Assembly: GCF_004022215.1 (NCBI RefSeq)
Contig: NZ_SAUZ01000018.1
Coordinates: 62,001 to 126,000, forward strand
Direction of reading: 5' to 3'
DNA length: 64,000 nt
Source: Paenirhodobacter populi
GTDB taxonomy: Bacteria > Pseudomonadota > Alphaproteobacteria > Rhodobacterales > Rhodobacteraceae
The position numbers and the translations under genes are program-made. The notes beneath the pieces are model-generated. The model made no database searches and was not told the origin of the DNA. It worked only from the letters and a program-made list of their open reading frames with translations. Shown here in pieces: positions 2,775-51,359 of the stretch (within the stretch, counting starts at the first letter, position 1; each line of letters starts with the position of its first letter).

Positions 2775-4439
2775 TCACACGACCAGCGTTTTCGGCCGGC
2801 GCCAGTGATACCAGTCGGCGATCAGCATGCGCACCAGCCACAGCGCGGTGAAGACCGAGGCGACGATGCCGATCAGCAGCGTCACGGCGAAGCCGCGCAC
2901 CGGACCCGCCCCCAGCACGAACAGGATCATGCCCACCATGAAATGGGTGACGTTCGCGTCGATGATGGCCGACATCGCCTTGTCGAAGCCCAGCTCGAAG
3001 GCGCGCACGGGGTTTCGCCCGCGTCGCAATTCCTCGCGCACACGTTCAAAGATCAGCACGTTGGCATCGACCGCGGTGCCGATGGTCAGCACGATCCCGG
3101 CGATGCCCGGCATGGTCAGCGTCGCGCCGATCAGCGACATGAAGGCGATGATGAAGATGATGTTGAACGCCAGCGCAAGCGAGGCGAAGACCCCGAAGAG
3201 GCCGTAGGAGGCGACCATGAAGGCCACCACCAGAATGAAGCCCGCGATCGAGGCGTAGATCCCCGCCTGCACCGTATCGGCGCCAAGCTCCGGCCCGATG
3301 GTGCGTTCCTCAAGGAAGGTCATTCCGGCGGGCAACGCCCCCGCGCGCAACAGCAGCGCCAGATCCGTCGCCTCCTGCACCGTGAAGCGGCCGGTGATGA
3401 TCCCCGAGCCGCCCGCGATATGGGTCTGGATCACTGGGGCCGAGATCACCTTGCCGTCGAGCACGATGGCGAAGGGCTCGCCGATATGGTTCGCGGTATA
3501 GTCGCCGAAGGTGCGCGCGCCCGTGGTGTTGAAGCGGAAGCCCACGGCGGGCATGCCGTTCTGGTCGGTTTCCGGCCGCGCATCGGTCAGCTCGTCGCCC
3601 GAGACGACGGGCAGCGTGTTGAGGATATAGTAAAGCCCCTGCTCGTTCGCGTCGGGCAGCACTTCCTGCCCCGCGCCCGGCGTCTGCTCGGCCGAGGCGG
3701 CGCGCCCGACCACCTGATGGAAGGTCAGCTTCGCCGTGGTGCCGATCAGCGCCTTTAGTTCGGCGGCCGAGCCGATGCCGGGCACCTCGATCAGGATCCG
3801 GTCGGCGCCCTGCCGCATGATCGTCGGCTCGCGCGTGCCGGCCGCATCGACGCGGCGGCGCACGATTTCCAGCGACTGCTGCATCGTGCGGTCGTCGGCC
3901 GTGGCCTTTTCCGCGTCCGAAAGCCGGATGGTGATCGTGTCGCCCTGCCCGCTGACGTCGAGGTCGTTCTGCCCTACGCCGGTCAGCGTCACCACCGGCG
4001 TGGCCAGCGTGCGCGCCACCTCGACCGCGCGGGCAAGCCCCGCCGCATTGCCGATCTGGATCTTCAGCTCGCCCGGATCCGACGGCAGCCGCCGGATCGA
4101 GCCGATCTGCGCCCGTTCCGCCGCCAGCACCCGGCGCAGTTCCGGCCAGAGCGATTCCATCCGCGCCTTGTAGACATCGCCCAGATGCACCTCGGCCAGC
4201 AGATGGGCGCCGCCGCGCAGATCGAGGCCGAGGTTGACCAGCCCCGAGGGCAGCCAGCTCGGCCAGCCATCCACGGCGGCGGCCTGTTCGTCGGTCAGCG
4301 TGCCGCTGCGTTCCTGCGCCGCAAGCGCGTCGTTATGCGACTCGACCTTTCCGTAGAACAGGTTCGGCGCGCCGAGGATCAGCCCGATCACGCAAAGACC
4401 AAGGATGACGATACGCTTCCAGAGCGGGAACTGCAGCAT
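2775..4439 (-). CDS. secD: Protein translocase subunit SecD
   Basis: A 554-residue protein. An N-terminal span is followed by the GLDLRGGAHLL motif (about residues 70-80), a large periplasmic P1 region and five C-terminal spans with the GTAVDANVLIFERVREE motif. It works with SecF in protein export. The order yajC-secD-secF is the standard bacterial one. Confidence 0.97.
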   Translation of the reverse strand: MLQFPLWKRIVILGLCVIGLILGAPNLFYGKVESHNDALAAQERSGTLTDEQAAAVDGWPSWLPSGLVNLGLDLRGGAHLLAEVHLGDVYKARMESLWPELRRVLAAERAQIGSIRRLPSDPGELKIQIGNAAGLARAVEVARTLATPVVTLTGVGQNDLDVSGQGDTITIRLSDAEKATADDRTMQQSLEIVRRRVDAAGTREPTIMRQGADRILIEVPGIGSAAELKALIGTTAKLTFHQVVGRAASAEQTPGAGQEVLPDANEQGLYYILNTLPVVSGDELTDARPETDQNGMPAVGFRFNTTGARTFGDYTANHIGEPFAIVLDGKVISAPVIQTHIAGGSGIITGRFTVQEATDLALLLRAGALPAGMTFLEERTIGPELGADTVQAGIYASIAGFILVVAFMVASYGLFGVFASLALAFNIIFIIAFMSLIGATLTMPGIAGIVLTIGTAVDANVLIFERVREELRRGRNPVRAFELGFDKAMSAIIDANVTHFMVGMILFVLGAGPVRGFAVTLLIGIVASVFTALWLVRMLIADWYHWRRPKTLVV

Positions 4440-4924: not shown

Positions 4925-6088
4925 TCATTTCGCCGGCAGCGCGCGCTCGACCAGACGGGCGAAATAGCTGGCGCCGATGGGCGCGGCCTCGTCGTTGAAG
5001 TCATAGGCCGGATGGTGCAGCCCCGCCCCCGGCCCGATGCCGAGGAAGACGAAGGCACCCGGCCGCGCCTCCAGCATGTAGGAGAAATCCTCGGCCCCCA
5101 TGTCACGCTCCACATCGTCGCGCACGAGGTCTGGGCCGGAGATTTCACGCGCGACATCGGCGGCGAAGGCGGCGTTCGAGGCGGTGTTGACCGTGGGCGG
5201 GTAGCCGCGTTCGTAGCGGATGTCGACGCTGACGCCGAAGGCCGCCGCCTGCCCGTGAACGATGGTGCGGAAGCGGTCCTCGACCATGTCGCGCACCGCC
5301 GGATCGAAAGAGCGGATCGTCGCGCTGAACCAGCCGCTTTCGGGCACGACATTGTTCGCCGTGCCGACGTGGATTTCGTTGATCGAGACGACAAGCTGGT
5401 CGATCGCCGAGGTGTTGCGGCTGACGATGGTCTGCAGCGCCTGCACCATGGCGACGATGGACAGCACCGGATCGATGCAGACCTCGGGCGTGGCGCCGTG
5501 GCCGCCCTTGCCCGTGACCGTGACCCATGCGGTGTCGACGGCGGCCATCACCGGCCCCGGCCCGGTTTCAAAGGCGCCAAGCGTCAGGTTCGGCGCGTTG
5601 TGCATGCCGTAGACCTGACTGATGCCGAACCGTTCCATGATGCCGGCCTTCACCATCACCTCGCCGCCACCGCCCTCTTCCTCGGCGGGCTGGAAGATCA
5701 GCGCGACGGAGCCCGCGAAATTCCGCGTCTCGGCCAGATATTTCGCGGCGCCAAGCAGCATGGTCATATGCCCGTCATGACCGCAGGCATGCATTTTGCC
5801 GGGGTGTTCCGAAGCCCAGTCCTTGCCGGTCGTTTCCGCCAGCGGCAGCGCATCCATGTCCGACCGCAGCCCGATCACCGGCCCCGGCCCGCGCCCGTGG
5901 ATCAGCGCCACGATCCCCGATGTGGCGATCCCTTCGTGAATCTCGTCGACGCCGAATTCGCGCAGCTTCCCGGCGACAAAGGCGGCGGTCTGCGGCAGAT
6001 CGAATTCCAGTTCGGGATGCCGGTGCAGCCAGTGCCGCCACGCGGTCATTTCCGGCGCGAAGGCGGCAATGCGATTGATCACGGGCAT
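4925..6088 (-). CDS. M20 family metallo-amidohydrolase
   Basis: A 387-residue M20D peptidase-type protein. Metal-ligand motifs include SDMDALP near residue 77, HACGHDGH near 103-110 and PAEEEGGGG near 137. The family removes N-acyl groups from amino acids or related amides (hippurate hydrolase and amidohydrolase types), with two metal ions in the active site. The substrate cannot be told from sequence. It is transcribed away from mazG. Confidence 0.88.
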   Translation of the reverse strand: MPVINRIAAFAPEMTAWRHWLHRHPELEFDLPQTAAFVAGKLREFGVDEIHEGIATSGIVALIHGRGPGPVIGLRSDMDALPLAETTGKDWASEHPGKMHACGHDGHMTMLLGAAKYLAETRNFAGSVALIFQPAEEEGGGGEVMVKAGIMERFGISQVYGMHNAPNLTLGAFETGPGPVMAAVDTAWVTVTGKGGHGATPEVCIDPVLSIVAMVQALQTIVSRNTSAIDQLVVSINEIHVGTANNVVPESGWFSATIRSFDPAVRDMVEDRFRTIVHGQAAAFGVSVDIRYERGYPPTVNTASNAAFAADVAREISGPDLVRDDVERDMGAEDFSYMLEARPGAFVFLGIGPGAGLHHPAYDFNDEAAPIGASYFARLVERALPAK

Positions 6089-9587: not shown

Positions 9588-10985
9588 ATGCCGCAGGTCC
9601 CCGATCCCGTCGAACAGAAGCTCCCGGTGAATCAGCTGATGCCGCTGGCGCTGCAACATGTGCTGGTGATGTATGCCGGCGCGGTGGCGGTGCCGCTGAT
9701 CGTCGGGCGGGCGCTGAACCTGTCGCCGCAGGAGGTCGCCTTCCTCATCAGCGCCGATCTTTTCGCCTGCGGCATCGCGACGCTCATCCAGTCCTGGGGC
9801 TTTCCGGGGGTGGGCATCCGGCTGCCGGTGATGATGGGGGTGACCTTCGCCTCGCTCGGGCCGATGTTGTCGATCGCGGCAAGTTCGGACGCCGGGCTTC
9901 TGGGGATCTTCGGCTCGGTGATCGGGGCGGGGATCTTCGGCATCCTGATCGCGCCTTTCGTGTCACGGCTGCTGCCATTGTTTCCGCCGGTGGTGACCGG
10001 CACCATCATCCTGATCATCGGGGTGTCGCTGATGCGGGTGGGCATCAACTGGGCGGGCGGCGGACAGCCGACGATCACCCGGGTCGTCGACGGCGTGCCG
10101 GGCGCCTTCCCGAACCCGGATTACGCGGCGCCGCAGGGGCTGATGATCGCGGGCTTCGTGCTGCTGTTCATCCTCGCGCTGCTGAAATGGGCAAGGGGCT
10201 TCGTGCGCAATGTCGCGGTGCTTCTGGGCATCGTGGCGGGCTGCGTCGTTGCCAGCGTTCTGGGCCTGATGCATTTCGACCGGGTGGGACAGGCCGACTG
10301 GATCGGTCTGGTCATGCCCTTCCATTTCGGCATGCCGACCTTCCATCTGGTGCCGATCCTGACCATGTGCATCGTGATGATCGTGGTGATGATCGAATCG
10401 CTCGGCATGTTTCTGGCGCTTGGCGAGATGACCGGGCGCAAGGTCGACCGCGCCGCGCTGACCCGGGGGCTGCGCGCCGATGGTCTGGGCACGCTGATCG
10501 GCGGCATCTTCAACACCTTCCCCTACACGTCGTTTTCACAAAACGTCGGGCTGGTCGGCGTGACGGGGATCCGCTCGCGGTGGGTGACGGTGGCCGGCGG
10601 CGGGATCATGATCCTGCTCGGACTGATGCCCAAGATGTCGGCGCTGGTCGAATCGGTGCCGCAGGTGGTGCTGGGCGGCGCGGGTCTGGTGATGTTCGGG
10701 ATGGTCGCGGCGACGGGGGCACGCATCCTCGGCACCGTGGATTTCAAGAAGAACCCGAACAACCTGTTCGTCGTGGCGATCTCGGTGGGCTTCGGGATGA
10801 TCCCCATCGTCGCGCCGAACTTCTTCAGAAGCCTGCCGCACGACCTGCATCCGCTGCTGGAATCCGGCATCCTGCTGGCGGCGATCTCCTCCGTCCTGAT
10901 GAACCTGTTCTTCAACGGGATCGTCAGCGAGAAAGAGGCGGAAGAAGAGGCAACGAAGGCCGCGACGACGGCCGAGCACGCCTGA
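9588..10985 (+). CDS. Nucleobase:cation symporter-2 family permease (xanthine/uracil type)
   Basis: A 465-residue, strongly hydrophobic protein of the NCS2 family, with about 14 spans. Visible family features include QHVLVMYAGAVAVPLIVG near the N-terminus, the FNTFPYTSFSQNVGLV block and the GLMPKMSALVESVPQVVLGGAGLVMFGMV motif. It imports a purine or pyrimidine base with a cation. The start follows a GAGGAGG ribosome site. A longer in-frame reading upstream is not needed. Confidence 0.92.
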   Translation: MPQVPDPVEQKLPVNQLMPLALQHVLVMYAGAVAVPLIVGRALNLSPQEVAFLISADLFACGIATLIQSWGFPGVGIRLPVMMGVTFASLGPMLSIAASSDAGLLGIFGSVIGAGIFGILIAPFVSRLLPLFPPVVTGTIILIIGVSLMRVGINWAGGGQPTITRVVDGVPGAFPNPDYAAPQGLMIAGFVLLFILALLKWARGFVRNVAVLLGIVAGCVVASVLGLMHFDRVGQADWIGLVMPFHFGMPTFHLVPILTMCIVMIVVMIESLGMFLALGEMTGRKVDRAALTRGLRADGLGTLIGGIFNTFPYTSFSQNVGLVGVTGIRSRWVTVAGGGIMILLGLMPKMSALVESVPQVVLGGAGLVMFGMVAATGARILGTVDFKKNPNNLFVVAISVGFGMIPIVAPNFFRSLPHDLHPLLESGILLAAISSVLMNLFFNGIVSEKEAEEEATKAATTAEHA

Positions 10986-40112: not shown

Positions 40113-40679
40113 TCAGCCTTTCGCCCTGCGTTTCGCCTGCCGTTTCACGGCCTTATCGATCAGCACACGCATTTCCGTGCTGATGATGCGCAGAGCCTCA
40201 TCCTTGTTGCCGTCCCATGCGGGCCGGATAAACGGCTGCGGCGCAGTTCCGGGATGATCCGCGCCCTTGAACATACCGCCCGCCTTGTGTGGGGCCGTGC
40301 CGAACTCTACCAGATGAGCATACGGTGCCTTCACGGATGGCCCGACGAACATCATCACCGGCGGCATGGTTCCCTTCGCAGCCCGCCTCGCATCGCGCAT
40401 TTGCCGAACAGCCGCTGCTTTATCAAAACCTGCGCGCATCGCAGCAGCGTATGCTGCCTTGCCTGCCTCGCCCTTGATCTTAGTGCCAACCGTGATGCTG
40501 CGCTTAAGGCGGCCGCCGCCTTTGGCCCTCTCTGGCGCCTTCTGCTGCATGGCTTCCGCGATCGGTTGCCCTGCCTTCTTAAGCGCGTTTCGCACGACGG
40601 TCTTGCGTGTGACGGTTTTTTCGAGCTGCATCAACGCTGCCTCAAGATCTCTAAGCCCTTCGACCTTGACCGTCGCCAT
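40113..40679 (-). CDS. HK97-gp10-family head-tail protein
   Basis: A 188-residue protein with VEGLRDLEAALMQLE and a helical KTVVRNALKKAGQPIAEAMQ segment followed by LKRSI, as in HK97 gp10 relatives. It is a neck or tail-completion factor. It abuts the head-closure gene. Confidence 0.85.
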   Translation of the reverse strand: MATVKVEGLRDLEAALMQLEKTVTRKTVVRNALKKAGQPIAEAMQQKAPERAKGGGRLKRSITVGTKIKGEAGKAAYAAAMRAGFDKAAAVRQMRDARRAAKGTMPPVMMFVGPSVKAPYAHLVEFGTAPHKAGGMFKGADHPGTAPQPFIRPAWDGNKDEALRIISTEMRVLIDKAVKRQAKRRAKG

Positions 40680-44650: not shown

Positions 44651-46363
44651 TCAAGCCTCCAGGCTGGCGAAGAAACCGGCCATCTTTACGTTGTTGTCGT
44701 TCGGTTGCGGGTTCAGAAACATCAGCATGGCGGCGTCGAAGGCGGCCATAAGGGGGTCGATCTTCGCCGCCCCGGACGCCTCTTTGGTCACCATGTAATT
44801 GTTCCTCACAAGCTCCTGCTTGGCATTGCCAACCGCCCAGTTCAGGAGCGGCTGATTACCGTGCAGGAGGCGTTTCGATTCCAGCTTCAGCGGCATCGTC
44901 GTGATCGCCGTCTGAAGCGCCCACCCCTGCTTGACGGCCTGCACGAGCGGTTCGCCCATCCCGAGATCGTTCAGGGCGTCGAACAGCAAGGCGATGCCCG
45001 CGCTGTCCAGACCGATGCCCGACGCCTCGGGCAGCAAGCCCGCCGACCAGATCTGAGCGCAGATGGCGGCGGCCTCGGCCGCCTGATCCTCGCCCGTCTG
45101 AACCACGCTCAGATGTCCGTCGGCCTCGAAATCGCGAAGGCGCGGCGCGATCTGCTCGCGCTGCGTGAAAACGCTCGGTCTCGCCCACGCCTTGGCCCAG
45201 AGAAGCCATGCCTTGTCCGACCGGCGCCGGCCGATCACCGCGAGTGCGGCGAGGTCATCAGCCCCGCCCCAGTCCACGCCGATCGTGCAGACCTCGCTCT
45301 CCTCCATCAGCGAATCGAGCGTCAGCCCCTCGCAGACGGCTCCTTCCCAGTGGATTGCCCCAGACCATGCGGCGCTGCCCAGGCCGACGCCAATTTCGAT
45401 GTTCAGATGCTGGCTGGCCCAGATCTGTTCCGTCTCTTTCGACACCCGGCCGTTGTTGTCGTAATCGTCCTGCAGCGCCTGCTCGTCGATCGACAGGCCG
45501 AGGTTCGGAAGCACGAGGCGCCAGTTTTCGCGATCCTGCCAGAAGGCCTTGTTGCGCTGAAGCTCATCCGGGAACTCGTAGAGAACAGGCAGCATGATCG
45601 GGGACTTCCCGCCCTTGCCGTCGCGAATGTCCCGTGCCTTTTTCAGTTCCGATTTCCAGATGCCCGCCGGCGCCTCGTCGGACTGCGTCGTGATGAACAG
45701 CACCTTGCCGCGCTGCATGGTGATGCCGCCACCGCGGATCTGCTGCATCACCTTGGCCGCCTTGGCCTTCTTGCCCAACTCGTGCAGCTCATCGATGATC
45801 GTCAGCACGGGAATTTCGCCCGTGACGATCGAGGTGTCGAACGTCTTCACATCGAGCGCCGTGCCGGTCTTGCGCCGGGTGATCGTCTTCAGATGCTCCT
45901 GAACCTTGAAGATATCCTTCAACTGCTGATCCAGGTTGATCATGCCCTGCGCCTGACTGAACAGACGCTCGGAAATGTTCTGGCTCGGACCGACCAGCAG
46001 CATCTGCCTGTTCGGGGCTTCCTCCATGTAAAGAGCCGTCAGGGCCAGCGCCGCGACATAGGTCGACTTCGAGTTCTTCTTCGGGATCATGCAAAGCAGT
46101 TCCCAGACGATCTCCCGGCCGGTCTGCGGGTCCTCGCTCGCCATGAAGGCGCACAGCAGATCCTTGAACCAGTCCCCGCAGGCAACAGCCATCTTCGGAT
46201 TCCCGGAGACGTCCGGGAGCCGCAGCCGGTTGAAGAACGCCAGAACCTTCGCTGCCTTCTCCTCATTGAGAGGAACCTCAGCCATCGGTGTTTCGCCGTT
46301 CTGGATTTTCCCCCACCAGTCCGGGCAGGCGAAGCGTGGCAGCGGGTCAGTTTGGCCGGACAT
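44651..46363 (-). CDS. terL: Terminase large subunit
   Basis: A 570-residue packaging motor. Walker A-like MIPKKNSKST is at 92-101, Walker B LTIIDE at 187-192, and the coupling motif TTQSD at 225-229. The nuclease domain starts with GVDWGGADD (Asp364). It cuts concatemers and pumps DNA into the prohead. Overlaps terS by 17 bases. Confidence 0.95.
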   Translation of the reverse strand: MSGQTDPLPRFACPDWWGKIQNGETPMAEVPLNEEKAAKVLAFFNRLRLPDVSGNPKMAVACGDWFKDLLCAFMASEDPQTGREIVWELLCMIPKKNSKSTYVAALALTALYMEEAPNRQMLLVGPSQNISERLFSQAQGMINLDQQLKDIFKVQEHLKTITRRKTGTALDVKTFDTSIVTGEIPVLTIIDELHELGKKAKAAKVMQQIRGGGITMQRGKVLFITTQSDEAPAGIWKSELKKARDIRDGKGGKSPIMLPVLYEFPDELQRNKAFWQDRENWRLVLPNLGLSIDEQALQDDYDNNGRVSKETEQIWASQHLNIEIGVGLGSAAWSGAIHWEGAVCEGLTLDSLMEESEVCTIGVDWGGADDLAALAVIGRRRSDKAWLLWAKAWARPSVFTQREQIAPRLRDFEADGHLSVVQTGEDQAAEAAAICAQIWSAGLLPEASGIGLDSAGIALLFDALNDLGMGEPLVQAVKQGWALQTAITTMPLKLESKRLLHGNQPLLNWAVGNAKQELVRNNYMVTKEASGAAKIDPLMAAFDAAMLMFLNPQPNDNNVKMAGFFASLEA

Positions 46364-46868
46364 TGTGCGTTGCCTCGAATTCGAGTTCGGCCATCAACGC
46401 CTCGTCGGCGTCGAGCGCCTTCTGTTCGTCGACCACCTTCTTGCCGACCTTCGGCGGCGGCTTCTCTTTGGCTTTCGCCGCGAAGGCCCGCTCGGCTTCC
46501 ATGCGGTCGTTCTTTTCGAGCAGTTGGACGAACAGCCGCTCCGCACCGACATTGCCGGACTGCGCCTGCGTCCAGACGCGCATCAGGCGTTCAGCCTCAA
46601 GGCGGTCGCGAGCAGCATCCCGGATTTGCAGCTCGGATCTAAAATGCCGCTTCAGCGTCGGAACGGAAATCGCCTTCCCGGTCCTTGGGTCAAGGATCAC
46701 CCCGGCGATCCTGTCGTTCGACCAGCCAGCCGCCAGCAACATGCTGACTTTGTTGGAGTTTTCCATAGTCCATTCGAAGGCGGGGCGGCCCCGCCTCTTG
46801 TTGGCAGCCGACCAGACCTCACCGAACAGGTTCCGGAACTGATCCGGGTCCGAATTTTCGTCGGTCAT
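46347..46868 (-). CDS. terS: Terminase small subunit
   Basis: A 173-residue protein with an N-terminal HTH region (KVSMLLAAGWSNDRIAGVIL, about 40-60) that would recognise the pac/cos site, then a helical oligomerisation part. The ATG comes straight after a terminator T-run, with no ribosome site visible, so the true start or its translation mode is unsure. Confidence 0.82.
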   Translation of the reverse strand: MTDENSDPDQFRNLFGEVWSAANKRRGRPAFEWTMENSNKVSMLLAAGWSNDRIAGVILDPRTGKAISVPTLKRHFRSELQIRDAARDRLEAERLMRVWTQAQSGNVGAERLFVQLLEKNDRMEAERAFAAKAKEKPPPKVGKKVVDEQKALDADEALMAELEFEATHNVRPN

Positions 46869-47202: not shown

Positions 47203-47511
47203 TCACCCTTCGGCCTTGGCCCCTGGATCCAGCACCGTCATGCAGACGGCATCTGCATCGTCGATGCGCCGACCCGAGCTGCTCTCGACCCAGCCGAACT
47301 CGATCTCACCACGGCTATAGTGCTGATCGACCTCAATACGGCGGTCAAAACCGCGAAGGGTGAGGCGTCTGTCTTTACCGATACGATCCCACATTGCGCG
47401 GCATCGATCACGCGCATCGACCTGACTCTTGCATACGACCATGATGCGATCGCCCGACAATGCGCGTCGCACCAGATCAACAATATCCATTTCAGCTTTG
47501 ATGTTACTCAT
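47203..47511 (-). CDS. Hypothetical phage protein, 102 residues
   Basis: Begins MSNIKAEMDIVDLVRRAL; charged and soluble, no recognised family. Its start overlaps the HNH gene stop by 4 bases (ATGA), which supports expression. Confidence 0.55.
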   Translation of the reverse strand: MSNIKAEMDIVDLVRRALSGDRIMVVCKSQVDARDRCRAMWDRIGKDRRLTLRGFDRRIEVDQHYSRGEIEFGWVESSSGRRIDDADAVCMTVLDPGAKAEG

Positions 47512-47861
47512 GTCGATCCATTCCTTTCCTCCGCCTGCTTGACCCGGTCATGGCATTCCTTGCACAGGCATTGCAGGTTGCCCCGATCCCAAAACAGCGC
47601 GGGGTCACCGCGATGCGGGATCTTGTGGTCGGCCACCAGCTTGAAGGTGTTCCCCTCAAGCCTGCCGCAATAGGCGCAGGTGAACCGCGCATCTTCGAGC
47701 ACTGACCAGCGCAGGTCCTTCCAGCGCGCCGTCTTGTACCAAGCCCGCCATGGCGTTCGAACGATCCGTTGCGCTGAACGCTCACGCTCATCACGCGGCG
47801 CATTGCCAAGGCGCACGGGCGCGGACCCGAAGCGCGACGGGATCTGTCGCAATCTGGTCAT
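47508..47861 (-). CDS. HNH endonuclease
   Basis: A 117-residue protein with an HNH motif: CAYCGRLEG (zinc pair), VADHKIPHRGDP (catalytic His), then NLQCLCKECHDRVK (Asn and second zinc pair). HNH nucleases next to the terminase are needed for packaging in several HK97-like phages. It lies upstream of terS on the same strand. Confidence 0.88.
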   Translation of the reverse strand: MTRLRQIPSRFGSAPVRLGNAPRDERERSAQRIVRTPWRAWYKTARWKDLRWSVLEDARFTCAYCGRLEGNTFKLVADHKIPHRGDPALFWDRGNLQCLCKECHDRVKQAEERNGST

Positions 47862-47982: not shown

Positions 47983-48765
47983 TTACTCCGCGATCCACAT
48001 ACGATCCAGCGCGGCACCCAGTTGCGATTGAAGGGCTGGTCGGGTGACCTTGTCTGGCACCCATCCGAACCGGCGCAGCACCTGTGAAATCGTCAGTCCC
48101 TCGATACAGACCAGATCCACGAGCACCCGCACCGTGATCCCGCTGCGACCGCTGCTACCCGCGCGCTTCGGAACCAGAGCGACATCGTCGCCGATGGCGG
48201 CCCGGAGGGCTTGAATGCAACGCCCTTCCTGTATCAGGGCATCCATATAGCTACTTCCCGTTGCGGAGCCGCCTGCCCGGCCCGCCAGCATCGTTTCGAT
48301 CGAGATTCCGCGAACACCTGCGGCATTGTGCTTCTCCACGAGGGCCGCATACCGGCGACCCATCCCCATCTGCCGATCCGAGAACGGCGGCCGGTATTCA
48401 TCGCCGCCCTTACGCCGGGCCTGTCGATCCATGAGGTCGAAGGCATCGGCCATCCGCGCCGCGTCACGCCCCTTAAAGCCGACATGCCGGACATCCCAAT
48501 CCTTATCCTTCGGTGTGACCAACAGCGGAGAGAACGCAACCATCGGACCCCGAGCGGGCGCCGCGATCATATCGGATCCACAGCGCTCCGGCGGCAATGC
48601 CCTGGCCTTCAGCAGCGCCACCCGATCGGCATCCGACACGAACGGATCTGGCAGACCGAAAGCCCGCGCCAGATCTGCCTGCACCCGCTTCTTCGCCAGA
48701 ACCAGACGCTCAATCACCGCGCCGAACTCCGCCTCATACCCCGTCCTTACCACATCTTGCGCCAT
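47983..48765 (-). CDS. Candidate late regulator with C-terminal HTH (DUF6456-like)
   Basis: A 260-residue protein. The middle has FSDRQMGMGRRYAALVEKH. The C-terminal ~60 residues (VRVLVDLVCIEGLTISQVLRR then FGWVPDKV) look like a sigma-4/DUF6456-type helix-turn-helix. It sits between the replication and packaging genes, the usual place for a late activator or antiterminator, and terminators follow downstream. Function inferred from position and HTH only. Confidence 0.55.
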   Translation of the reverse strand: MAQDVVRTGYEAEFGAVIERLVLAKKRVQADLARAFGLPDPFVSDADRVALLKARALPPERCGSDMIAAPARGPMVAFSPLLVTPKDKDWDVRHVGFKGRDAARMADAFDLMDRQARRKGGDEYRPPFSDRQMGMGRRYAALVEKHNAAGVRGISIETMLAGRAGGSATGSSYMDALIQEGRCIQALRAAIGDDVALVPKRAGSSGRSGITVRVLVDLVCIEGLTISQVLRRFGWVPDKVTRPALQSQLGAALDRMWIAE

Positions 48766-48789: not shown

Positions 48790-49147
48790 GTTTCTCTAAG
48801 ATTTTTGACGGGAGGATAGGGAGGATAATTGAAATTAACGGGAGGACATGAAGGAGGATGAAAGATGCGGATTATAACGTAATATCAACGCACTAACGAT
48901 CATCACGGGAGGATAGGGAGGAACGGGAGGATAATTCTTGCTACGTCTGGAATACTCTCCCCCAGACCCCCTATTCCCTTCTCCTACACGTACGCGGGAT
49001 TTATCCTCCCGTTCCTCCCTATCCTCCCGTCTTGGCTGGCAACCCATTGACGTTTCGACATTTCCCCCGCTCCCCTCGATTTCCCACGTCCTCCCGATTT
49101 CATCGTCCCGTCCTCCCTGTCCTCCCGCATTTCTGAGAAAATGGGGT
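48790..49147. repeat. Dyad-symmetric array of 12 GGGAGGA units; candidate replication origin
   Basis: Six GGGAGGA on the plus strand start at 48810, 48819, 48840, 48907, 48916 and 48925. Six TCCTCCC start at 49004, 49013, 49022, 49089, 49111 and 49120. The order is 2+1+3 then 3+1+2, and every pair is mirrored about 48967.5-48968. Units within a group are spaced 9 bp. The inner triples form a perfect 29-bp inverted repeat (48906-48934/49001-49029), while the DNA between groups has diverged. It lies between the primase-helicase gene and the candidate late regulator; no gene is visible in 48766-49155. Confidence 0.8.
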
Positions 49148-49155
49148 GCGGGGCA

Positions 49156-50955
49156 TCACTCGGGCGTCTCATACCGGCCCTTGATGATCGAGCCGTCATG
49201 CGCGCGCGGGGCCTCAAGGAACCGGGTTTTGAACGGCTCGCGGAACTGGATGCCGTCGTAGAACATGGAACTGTTCTTCCGGGCGACGAAAACCTGCCCC
49301 GTCCCCGGACTCTTCCAACGCCCGGACTTCTCCTTCAGGCGATTGTAGATCGTGCGCGGCTTCCATGCGCCTCGCCCGGCTTCATCCATCCAGAATGAAA
49401 ATGCGTCGCTGAGCTGCTTTGCCGGGACACTGTGTGCCGGATCTCCGGTGACCGCACAGCACTCCACCAGGAATGTTGCCATCGGATCGCTGTCCTCGCG
49501 ATACTCCGCCGTCGCCGCCGTGACTTCCTCTGGGATCTGTAGTCCGTGCTGAAGGTAATCCTTCAGCCCTTCGATCAGCCAGTTGAGGATGCCGGATCGC
49601 TCCTCCCACAGCTTGGCGCCGAGTTCAGGGTCGCGCTCATCCGGCGGGATCTGCACATCGAACGGCACCAGCATGACGCGCCGCCAGATCCCGTCGTCGC
49701 CGCCATGGATCTCAGGCTTGTGGTTGCCCGAGATCGTAAGCTTGAAGATCGGATAGATGGTGACGAAGTTCTCGTTGAGCGCCCGGACCATGATCGGCTC
49801 GCCGCCGGTCAGTTCCTTGATCAACCCTTCCTGAAGCTTTTCACCGGCGTTGGGCTCGGACGCCCGAACGAAACGAGCGCCGATCAGCGGCATCAGGTCC
49901 GGCGTGGCATCCCCGCCCCCCCGACGATTGCGGCCGGTAATGGATTCGATCTTGGCGGTGGCGGAGTAATCCCCGAACAGTTTCGCCATCAGGTCGACCA
50001 GAACGGACTTGCCGTTCGCCCCGCCCCCATAGAAGAAGGCGAACTTCTGTTCGTTCGTCAGCCCGGTCATCGAAAGCCCCATCCAGCGCTGAATGAAGCG
50101 GCGCATATCGGCCAACGGCTGCACGCGCTCCAGGAACATCAGGAACTGCGGGCATTTCGCCCTTTGGTCGTAGGTGACAGGCATGACCTTGGTCAGCAAC
50201 TGCTCGCGCGCATGCGGAATGGCCTCGACCAAGGCCCGCGGAGGCGGAGGATTCATGCCCCCGTCGTCCTCACCCGGTTCGGTGCTGAAGCGCAGGACGC
50301 AGGACTCGGTATTGATCACCATCGGATCGGCATCGAGATCTTCCAGCGGCCGGGCAATGATCGCCGCCGCCTCCCCCATCAGGTTCTTGATCGCGTTCGA
50401 GTTGCCGGCATTCTTGGCGTGCGTGAGACGCCGCCCGATCGATCTGTCACGCTTTTCCTTGATCTTGTCGGCTGCACGTCGGAGCGAGGTCAGGAAATCA
50501 AAGCGCGCGCTTTCGGCCTCGGACCGAAGGTTTGCGAGTTTTCCGCGCAGCTCGGCGTATTCCGACTCGCTGGCCTCGACATCCTGAAGGACCGCCGCCT
50601 CGTCATCATCCATCGGGATGTGCCAGACTTCGCGCGCGATCAGATCGGAAAGCTGATGTGCCTTGCGCCGCACCGCAATATCATCCGGGTCGGTCAGCCA
50701 CCGGGCATCCGCCCAAGTGAACCACCCGACCCGCGGGATGAACAGAAGGTCGTCGCCAAAGTGCTCCAGCAACCGTTTACCATTGCCGTAATCATTCAGC
50801 GGGAAGTCGACACATCTCTCTTCCGGGGGTGCGGGGCGGTCCCCTGCCCGATCATCCGGGCAGGGGCCGGGATCGAGGCCATCCCACGCATCATGGTCAT
50901 CATCCCCATCGTGGACGGGTGTCACATTCGCCAGTGGATCGTTGTCGTCTCTCAT
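49156..50955 (-). CDS. P4/D5-family phage primase-helicase
   Basis: A 599-residue protein. It has an acidic N-terminus, a D5_N-type region, and an SF3-like helicase with Walker A FYGGGANGKSV (about 303-313), ARFVRASEPNAG and the LTISGNHKPEI motif. A C-terminal winged-helix-like domain follows. It probably starts and unwinds phage DNA. The ATG at 50955 has a GGGGGAAATCC site before it, and its upstream neighbour overlaps by 4 bases. Confidence 0.9.
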   Translation of the reverse strand: MRDDNDPLANVTPVHDGDDDHDAWDGLDPGPCPDDRAGDRPAPPEERCVDFPLNDYGNGKRLLEHFGDDLLFIPRVGWFTWADARWLTDPDDIAVRRKAHQLSDLIAREVWHIPMDDDEAAVLQDVEASESEYAELRGKLANLRSEAESARFDFLTSLRRAADKIKEKRDRSIGRRLTHAKNAGNSNAIKNLMGEAAAIIARPLEDLDADPMVINTESCVLRFSTEPGEDDGGMNPPPPRALVEAIPHAREQLLTKVMPVTYDQRAKCPQFLMFLERVQPLADMRRFIQRWMGLSMTGLTNEQKFAFFYGGGANGKSVLVDLMAKLFGDYSATAKIESITGRNRRGGGDATPDLMPLIGARFVRASEPNAGEKLQEGLIKELTGGEPIMVRALNENFVTIYPIFKLTISGNHKPEIHGGDDGIWRRVMLVPFDVQIPPDERDPELGAKLWEERSGILNWLIEGLKDYLQHGLQIPEEVTAATAEYREDSDPMATFLVECCAVTGDPAHSVPAKQLSDAFSFWMDEAGRGAWKPRTIYNRLKEKSGRWKSPGTGQVFVARKNSSMFYDGIQFREPFKTRFLEAPRAHDGSIIKGRYETPE

Positions 50956-51359
50956 GAGGATTTCCCCCTGAACCTTCCACTCGGATCGACGCGGCCAAGG
51001 AAGGCCCGACGGCTTGCGTCGTCGAAGCTCTCCCAAAGCGTGGCGAAGATCCGTTTCCGCGCCGCCTCACAGAATGCCTGGCGGCTGATTTTCCTCAGGC
51101 CTTCGGCAACGAAGACCTCGATTTCGACAGGCGTGGCGCAATCCGCCCAGAACGCCGCATCTTCCCGGATCCGGCCGAACAGCAGATCCGGCGATGGCAT
51201 CCCCGCGCCCAGATCCTCCAGCGCAGCCGCCATGATCTGGACCGCGTCCTCGGGCTCGCAGGCGCGGATCGCAGCGGCCAGTATTCGCGTGGCCTCCGCC
51301 CGACGTTCGCGATCCGCCACCATCGCAGAGACGGCGCCATGATCATCCCCGTCCGGCAT
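50952..51359 (-). CDS. Hypothetical phage protein, 135 residues
   Basis: Helical and acidic, with ILAAAIRACEPEDAVQIMAA and LLFGRIREDAAFWADCATP. It overlaps the primase start by 4 bases and the DUF1937 gene end by 17. Three possible in-frame ATGs (51377, 51359, 51323) lack clear ribosome sites. No family recognised; probably replication-associated by position. Confidence 0.55.
   Translation of the reverse strand: MPDGDDHGAVSAMVADRERRAEATRILAAAIRACEPEDAVQIMAAALEDLGAGMPSPDLLFGRIREDAAFWADCATPVEIEVFVAEGLRKISRQAFCEAARKRIFATLWESFDDASRRAFLGRVDPSGRFRGKSS

What the first reader, a model, noticed from the sequence alone, without database searches (positions are those of the whole stretch)
48790..49147. 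Twelve GGGAGGA units in a precise mirror-symmetric array beside the primase gene
The units occur as 2+1+3 on one strand and 3+1+2 on the other, and all mirrored pairs share one centre (48967.5-48968) to within half a base. Within groups the spacing is 9 bp. The inner triples form a perfect 29-bp inverted repeat, yet the DNA between groups has diverged, so only the motifs and their spacing seem to be kept. This is what selection on a protein-binding array would leave. The place, upstream of neither flanking gene's first promoter but next to a P4/D5 primase-helicase, suggests a phage replication origin or a segregation/packaging site. Alternatives are an RNA hairpin acting on the leftward transcript, or triplex-forming purine DNA.
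Basis: partly seen in the sequence, partly recalled or inferred. Interest (0 to 1): 0.9.

Follow-up and report, generated by a model that had tools for sequence, protein, structure and literature searches.

The report
Phage replication origin with mirrored iterons
The mirrored repeats are most likely the DNA replication start site of a dormant virus in this bacterium, read by the virus's own primase-helicase, and the same layout with other letters recurs in other phages, an archaeal virus and an archaeal plasmid.

Summary
The array is real: 12 of the window's 15 exact GGGAGGA lie in 317 bp (48810-49126), 2+1+3 / 3+1+2, mirrored about 48968. It lies just 3' of a D5-type primase-helicase gene. 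Relatives keep the lattice (9-bp steps, convergent inner groups) while spacers diverge, and many use a different repeat (GGGACG, GGGCCTG, GGGGCG, ATGACG). Among 49 non-redundant loci found by primase homology, not by motif, 24 carry the convergent 9-bp set within 420 bp of the primase stop with at most one mismatch; shuffles gave 0. The array follows the primase, not the packaging genes: Sc-Yong805-1 has it with a lambda-type terminase and none of the window's packaging genes, while four phages with related packaging genes but no primase match lack it. Repeat sequence covaries with the primase's C-terminal winged helix, not with its helicase domain or neighbouring p260. The annotated Sfi21 origin and the region required for pRN1 replication share the design. 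Best reading: the prophage's initiator-dependent origin, of the PICI/P4 kind, in an elaborate 12-iteron form. Packaging, operator and RNA-hairpin readings fit less well. Binding and replication were not tested.

The parts
48810..49126 (.). Origin array: 12 GGGAGGA iterons in four blocks, mirror-symmetric about 48968
48810..48846 (+). Left outer block (48810, 48819, 48840)
48905..48934 (+). Left inner triple (48907, 48916, 48925); one arm of the 30-bp perfect inverted repeat
48935..49000 (.). Central region between the inner triples, 46% AT against 36% in the window; proposed melting/loading region (inferred)
   Evidence: proposed by analogy with PICI origins
49001..49030 (-). Right inner triple (49004, 49013, 49022); other arm of the inverted repeat
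49089..49126 (-). Right outer block (49089, 49111, 49120)
49156..51036 (-). Primase-helicase / proposed initiator, 626 aa as called from TTG; D5_N and DUF5906; C-terminal part (about 517-600) modelled as a winged helix
47983..48765 (-). p260: next gene, unknown function, no Pfam or PHROG match; not the best candidate reader of the array
47508..47861 (-). HNH endonuclease
46347..46868 (-). phrog_12540 protein, probable small terminase subunit (relatives in MseS-P1 and Rivra are so annotated)
44651..46363 (-). Large terminase subunit (phrog_9)

Best explanation
The array is the replication origin (or the essential initiator-binding part of it) of this prophage. The D5-type primase-helicase encoded directly upstream binds the 9-bp iterons with its C-terminal winged helix. 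Two convergent iteron sets facing each other across a centre of about 65 bp (start-to-start 64-132 bp in relatives) would seat two helicase complexes that open the centre and start replication. Shown here: real array, conserved lattice with changing iteron sequence, linkage to the primase gene, covariation with its winged helix, and the same anatomy at an annotated phage origin and in a plasmid region shown by others to be required. Inferred: binding, the two-complex loading, melting at the centre, and the role of the outer blocks (extra initiator sites; six iterons per half would match six subunits of one helicase ring).
For: Position 3' of the primase: of 39 viral-contig stretches with a strong array (of 65, not deduplicated; L070 is this phage itself or a near-identical copy), 31 have the primase, 1 (L066) has a VapE/DUF5906 primase-helicase instead, 5 begin or end at the array, 2 (L027, L055) are unresolved. 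Lag specificity: 73 non-redundant primase loci, convergent 2x2 set with <=1 mismatch at lag 9 in 46, at lags 5-8 and 10-14 in 0-4 each, control windows 1 of 199. Of these 73, 23 had come in through the motif and L008 is this phage; in the other 49, 24 pass at <=1 and 28 at <=2; shuffles 0 and at most 2. Different iterons, same layout. Same array with unrelated packaging genes: Sc-Yong805-1 TerL is phrog_15, the window's phrog_9, and it has no tblastn hit to the window's TerS, TerL, HNH or p260. Four phages with related HNH, TerS and TerL but no primase match (E<=1) have no such set before HNH (best lag-9 score 5-7 mismatches). Covariation: motif distance versus winged-helix distance given helicase r=0.20, p=0.0025, reverse r=-0.03, p=0.57 (34 loci); with L103 put back r=0.23, p=0.0015, reverse -0.05 (35 loci); given p260 r=0.42, p=0.001, reverse -0.09, p=0.84 (17 loci). 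Winged helix in the model. Controls: Sfi21 GenBank origin (step 8, span 89), pRN1 required region (step 9, no mismatch), P4 crr annotated type 1 repeats next to alpha. Published logic: the SaPI Rep C-terminus reads iterons directly downstream of its gene; Cch2 likewise (PMC7581432, passages).
Against: No binding or replication data for this array. Cumulative GC skew does not turn at the array in four complete relatives or in the window stretch. The centre is only mildly AT-rich. 21 of 49 primase loci found without the motif, 20 of them below 44% identity, lack the pattern at <=2 mismatches, as does Bordetella BIP-1. My detector at lag 9 missed the annotated P4 crr and P4 ori, and Sfi21 fits at lag 8, not 9. 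GenBank marks RcapNL's genome ends, a 26-bp '3' cohesive overhang', inside its array. Mantel permutation does not fully remove shared ancestry.
Confidence: 0.85

Rival explanations
1. Packaging site (cos/pac): the small terminase subunit, helped by HNH and perhaps p260, binds the iterons and the genome is cut in a spacer.
For: The array lies between the replication and packaging modules in the window and many relatives. GenBank marks RcapNL's ends (26-bp '3' cohesive overhang') inside its array. A few metagenomic contigs (L009, L016, L051) end in or next to the array.
Against: Sc-Yong805-1 and AmM-1 have the array but no tblastn hit to the window's TerS, TerL, HNH or p260, and phrog_15 terminases. 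In AmM-1 the array is about 3.2 kb from the record's end, the terminase genes being at the record's start. RcRhea has a 13-base 5' overhang by PMC8601537 Table 3; if its record begins at those ends, its iterons are about 1.4 kb away. Four phages with related HNH/TerS/TerL and no primase match have no array before HNH. The spacer at the place of RcapNL's marked ends is poorly conserved (in which RcapNL was not included). PMC8601537 Table 3 lists RcapNL as circularly permuted.
Confidence: 0.07
2. Binding array for another DNA-binding protein (p260 or a host factor), acting as operator or partition site for the packaging operon.
For: p260 is in the fetched stretch of 21 of 39 strong-array contigs, and the array is its 5' leader.
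Against: Arrays occur without a p260 match (Sc-Yong805-1, AmM-1). Psul1 has p260 but no primase match, and the three gaps tested near it show no lag-9 set (5 mismatches or more; one lag-10 set with 2 mismatches at 9900-10200). Motif does not follow p260 once the winged helix is accounted for (r=-0.09, p=0.84, 17 loci; p260 alone r=0.13, p=0.049).
Confidence: 0.04
3. RNA or DNA hairpin element acting on the leftward transcript (terminator or structured leader), or a cruciform.
For: The window copy folds very well as RNA (-169.5 kcal/mol, z -10.5); the pRN1 authors call their region a stem-loop whose integrity is required.
Against: Outer blocks are flipped in relatives (L009, L045, L023, L052 of 16). 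Linkers pair no better nested (4.11 of 6) than swapped (4.13) in 46 loci. The 9-bp direct periodicity has no role in a hairpin. No terminator-like site. The three Rfam matches are below their gathering scores.
Confidence: 0.02

Closest known systems
PICI/SaPI pri-rep-ori (PMC6092414, passages read; PMC7581432, passages read)
   Same: Origin directly 3' of the initiator gene; two sets of iterons facing across a central region; the initiator's C-terminal domain reads the iterons (in SaPI, from the paper).
   Different: This is a full phage with its own packaging and capsid genes; four blocks with 12 iterons; centre only mildly AT-rich. [quoted passage not shown]
Satellite phage P4 crr and ori with alpha protein (GenBank features; alpha carries D5_N, DUF5906, Pox_D5)
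   Same: 300-bp region of direct and inverted type 1 repeats, two of them 9 bp apart in each half, just 3' of the alpha primase gene.
   Different: P4 also has a second site (ori) about 4.5 kb away; other repeat steps are 10-18 bp. No second convergent set of the own iteron was found in the window or in five relatives, only stray single pairs (Pthi1 seen in part).
Streptococcus phage Sfi21 origin (GenBank feature)
   Same: Annotated origin immediately after a DUF5906/Pox_D5 primase; convergent tandem pairs, span 89.
   Different: 8-bp step; two units per side in the core found.
Archaeal plasmid pRN1 origin (PMC4234260, abstract and passages)
   Same: Required region just 3' of a D5_N/DUF5906/Pox_D5 protein; its stem holds two TGTCCA copies 9 bp apart on each arm, span 79.
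   Different: The authors describe it as a stem-loop without iteron structure; two units per arm only.

Membership tests
Initiator-linked iteron origin of the PICI/P4 kind | D5-type primase-helicase encoded directly upstream | tested here: met
   D5_N, DUF5906; array starts about 30 bp after the stop codon
Initiator-linked iteron origin of the PICI/P4 kind | Two sets of iterons facing each other across a central region | tested here: met
Initiator-linked iteron origin of the PICI/P4 kind | C-terminal double-stranded-DNA-binding domain in the initiator | tested here: inconclusive
   predicted only: winged-helix order of elements at about 517-600 in the AlphaFold2 model and covariation; Pfam Pox_D5 did not match the window protein at 0.001
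Initiator-linked iteron origin of the PICI/P4 kind | AT-rich centre | tested here: inconclusive
   46% AT against 36% window-wide; centre exceeds its locus in 40 of 46 loci
Initiator-linked iteron origin of the PICI/P4 kind | Initiator binds; fragment replicates autonomously | not testable with these tools
   needs bench work
PICI or P4-like satellite (the whole element) | Lacks own capsid and full packaging genes, depends on a helper | tested here: not met
   window carries TerL and genes matching Pthi1's annotated portal and major capsid protein
cos/pac site | Linked to the terminase genes | tested here: not met
   array kept with unrelated packaging genes, absent before HNH in four phages with related ones and no primase match
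cos/pac site | Virion ends lie in the site | not tested
   only conflicting records for RcapNL
Structured RNA element | Pairing conserved across relatives beyond the repeats themselves | tested here: not met

The most novel reading that the evidence does not exclude
One origin design, a convergent lattice of 8-9-bp steps read by the winged helix of D5-type primase-helicases, spans temperate phages, satellites, an archaeal virus and an archaeal plasmid. Iteron letters drift and co-evolve with the winged helix while the lattice stays fixed, so the iteron sets replicon identity. The 12-iteron form gives one iteron per subunit of a double hexamer, and the 'stem-loop' origin of pRN1 is in fact such an iteron pair.
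Probability: 0.35. Interest if true: 0.78.

Novelty: new variant of a known kind. Interest (0 to 1): 0.6.

Why it matters
It gives a sequence rule (a convergent 9-bp lattice just after a D5-type primase) that predicts origins in many phages and mobile elements annotated only as 'DNA primase, hypothetical protein'. It extends to full phages, and to an archaeal virus and plasmid, an origin layout reported as unique to PICIs. It offers a natural series of paired initiator domains and iterons for working out how these helicases recognise DNA, and a testable re-reading of the pRN1 stem-loop.

Tried and rejected
Packaging site: first favoured because RcapNL's GenBank ends fall in the array; dropped after Sc-Yong805-1, AmM-1, RcRhea and the terminase-only phages. 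Contig ends inside arrays were not used as evidence for it, since inverted repeats can break assemblies. GC skew gave no support. Rfam gave three sub-threshold microRNA matches. A whole-record detector ranked the array first in 6 of 18 fetched phage records (Pthi1 part, RcapNL, Mae-JY02, AmM-1, Sc-Yong805-1, Wrath), that is 6 of the 13 that have the primase; Wrath is not supported by the stricter test (4 mismatches), AmM-1 won only narrowly, and L4768, BcepC6B and RcRhea were missed. It is noisy in GC-rich coding DNA. The core detector missed P4, L076, L062 and L017 (in the last three the array lies further from the primase). RR1-A was fetched only to base 50000 of 53102, so its case is open. 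TerL covariation was not run (6 loci only).

Rows dropped: of 90 primase loci whose alignment reaches residue 540, 73 remained after removing near-identical primases and loci with under 300 bp downstream. 23 of the 73 came through the motif and L008 is this phage; 49 are free of that bias. 50 of the 73 gave iteron profiles (<=2 mismatches); 34 of these, meeting alignment limits, entered the covariation test. L103 had been left out by hand; with it (35) the result holds. Column conservation used 16 GGGAGGA-type loci, most of them found through that motif, so the unit value of 90% is inflated.

Papers: passages of PMC8601537, PMC7581432, PMC6092414, PMC4234260 (with abstract), PMC7145576 and PMC6536676 were read; all others were seen as search listings only. 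No paper describing these arrays was seen in the listings; several listings were capped (20 of 59, 20 of 47, 20 of 127, 6 of 215, 8 of 297) and only open-licence papers are held. That PDB 7ola is a SaPI Rep, that P4 alpha's C-terminus is a winged helix outside the passage, and the IHF consensus are recalled.

Full report
Observation. The window holds 15 exact GGGAGGA, 12 of them in 48810-49126. They form 2+1+3 on the + strand and 3+1+2 on the - strand, mirrored about 48968, with 9-bp steps inside groups. The inner triples hold a 30-bp perfect inverted repeat. In the window's genome GGGAGGATAGGGAGGA with 0-1 mismatch is found only here, and elsewhere in the window there is one single 9-bp-spaced pair (33014) and no second convergent set.

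Surroundings. On the - strand the order is primase-helicase (49156-51036; D5_N and DUF5906, phrog_1156), array, p260 (47983-48765, no family), HNH endonuclease, a 102-aa ORF, phrog_12540 protein, large terminase subunit (phrog_9), then genes matching Pthi1's annotated portal and major capsid protein. The array starts about 30 bp after the primase stop.

Relatives. An exact scan for GGGAGGATAGGGAGGA gave 65 viral-contig stretches. By a motif-density score 39 are strong arrays. Of these 31 have the primase in the fetched stretch, 1 has a VapE/DUF5906 primase-helicase, 5 stretches begin or end at the array and 2 are unresolved; they are not deduplicated and L070 is this phage or a near-identical copy. 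Of the 26 weak ones 7 have the primase and 19 do not; I take many of those 19 for chance matches. Geometry is kept: offsets near 0, 9, 30, 97, 106, 115 and their mirror recur, total length about 250-350 bp. Across 16 non-redundant GGGAGGA-type loci the unit columns are 90% identical to the window and the spacers 40% (the unit value is inflated because most were found through the motif). The inner groups are convergent in all 16; outer groups are flipped wholly or partly in several (L009, L045, L023, L052; single units in L010, L018, L065).

Different letters, same lattice. Relatives found by primase homology carry other repeats in the same layout: GGGAAGGTA (L077), GGGACGCAA (RcapNL), GGGCCTGAC (Pthi1), GGGCCCGAC (L076), CGGCCCGAA (L075, L080, L082) and GGGGCGC (L083-L086). 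Some more distant primases have a minimal form, two or three units per side, sometimes starting within 20 bp of the stop codon: ATGACGCTT (L091, L097), ATGACAAAA (L128), AGTGTAG (L090), TTGGGACAC (L134).

Statistics. The test asks for two sites in tandem and two inverted sites in tandem, 6-mers, within 160 bp, in 420 bp after the primase. Of 73 non-redundant loci 46 pass at lag 9 with <=1 mismatch; lags 5-8 and 10-14 give 0-4; 1 of 199 control windows passes. Because 23 of the 73 came in through the motif and L008 is this phage, the fair set is the other 49: 24 pass at <=1 and 28 at <=2; 20 rounds of shuffles gave 0 and at most 2; other lags gave at most 2 and 5. For primases at 44% identity or more, 12 of 15 pass at <=1 and 14 of 15 at <=2. 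Below 44%, 14 of 34 pass at <=2, so most distant primases lack a form that this test recognises.

Primase or terminase? Sc-Yong805-1 has the GGGAGGATA array after a 51%-identical primase, but its TerL is phrog_15 (lambda type) and it has no hit to the window's TerS, TerL, HNH or p260. AmM-1 has the array after its primase, again with phrog_15 and none of those hits. RcRhea, reported with 13-base 5' overhangs (PMC8601537 Table 3), has AGGGGACTT x3 with an inverted partner at one mismatch about 1.4 kb from the record's end. Conversely ppBeUSDA76-1, LagS-V1, Rivra and MseS-P1 have related HNH, TerS and TerL, no primase match even at E<=1, and no convergent set in the stretch before HNH (5-7 mismatches at lag 9, 4 or more at lags 8 and 10). 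Against this stands the RcapNL GenBank annotation of a 26-bp cohesive overhang inside its array; PMC8601537 instead lists RcapNL as circularly permuted.

Which protein reads it? An AlphaFold2 model of the primase (without its first residue; 23 sequences, mean pLDDT 83) ends in a winged-helix order of elements at 517-600. Motif distance correlates with distance in this domain (r=0.32) and more weakly with the helicase domain (r=0.25); given the helicase, the winged helix keeps r=0.20, p=0.0025, and not the other way round (r=-0.03, p=0.57; 34 loci; the same with L103). In the 17 loci with p260 the winged helix keeps its signal given p260 (r=0.42, p=0.001), p260 has none given the winged helix (-0.09, p=0.84). 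Mantel permutation does not fully remove shared ancestry. By fold the 50 best-listed solved chains are all African swine fever virus PrimPol; by sequence that protein and PDB 7ola, a 797-aa DNA primase, match weakly.

Known origins as controls. The Sfi21 record marks an origin immediately after a DUF5906/Pox_D5 primase; it holds TTAGTTAC x2 and its inverse, step 8, span 89. phi105 has TGTTAC pairs at step 9, span 99, right after its primase. In pRN1 the region after orf904 shown to be required (PMC4234260) holds TGTCCA pairs at step 9 on both arms, no mismatch, span 79. P4's crr, annotated as cis-required, lies beside alpha with type 1 repeats at 4314, 4323 (+), 4366, 4384 (-) and 4398 (+) and a second copy, though my detector does not pick it up. 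BcepC6B (no mismatch) and the archaeal virus L4768 (one) pass; BIP-1 does not. D5_N and DUF5906 are shared by the window protein, Sc-Yong805-1, RcRhea, L4768, P4 alpha, phi105, pRN1 and the four distant primases scanned; BcepC6B shows D5_N only and Sfi21 DUF5906 with Pox_D5.

Mechanism. Shown: lattice, conservation, linkage, covariation. [quoted passage not shown] the isolated Cch2 C-terminal domain binds its putative origin (PMC7581432, passages). Inferred: here two initiator complexes assemble on the two halves and open the centre; six iterons per half equals the number of subunits in one helicase ring. Minimal relatives with two per side show that six are not always needed, so the outer blocks may raise affinity or set firing frequency.

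Verdict. An ordinary function in an unusually regular form that the searches made did not find described: a phage origin of the PICI/P4 kind with four mirrored blocks.

Noticed in passing
L142 (pRN1) about 5078-5190: The published stem-loop origin of pRN1 is made of two 9-bp-spaced TGTCCA copies on each arm, so it may be an iteron pair rather than a structure.
   Followed up: partly
L105 (RcapNL) 1-26 and 40464-40489: GenBank marks a 26-bp terminal repeat as a 3' cohesive overhang, while PMC8601537 Table 3 calls the genome circularly permuted; it could be an assembly overlap.
   Followed up: partly
window 48935-49000 and spacers; relatives: Recurring spacer elements: TACGYGTA/GCGCGCG in the centre, G-runs such as GGGGTTCGGGGG, and CAATGGGTTG; function unknown.
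   Followed up: no
L080, L083, L084, L077 downstream of the array: AATCAAC-type sequences resembling an IHF site (consensus recalled) between array and p260.
   Followed up: no
L125, L128: Minimal origins beside genes that look like host genes (sbcB-type exonuclease, HMG-CoA reductase), suggesting small integrated elements.
   Followed up: partly
L017, L055, L062: Array intact although 0.6-1.3 kb separates it from the primase (L062, L017), or a C5-methylase gene lies beside it (L055).
   Followed up: partly
L066 7916-8321: A GGGAGGA array beside a VapE-like/BT4734-type primase-helicase, outside the main primase group.
   Followed up: partly
L144 (BIP-1): No 9-bp array after the primase although its relative BcepC6B has one.
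   Followed up: no
L112 40516-40977, L108 35782-36111: Annotated hypothetical genes overlap the arrays in Sc-Yong805-1 and L4768 and may be spurious.
   Followed up: no
L113 (Psul1) 9900-10200: GGACA/TGTCC repeats with a 10-bp convergent set at 2 mismatches between its replication-like genes and p260.
   Followed up: no
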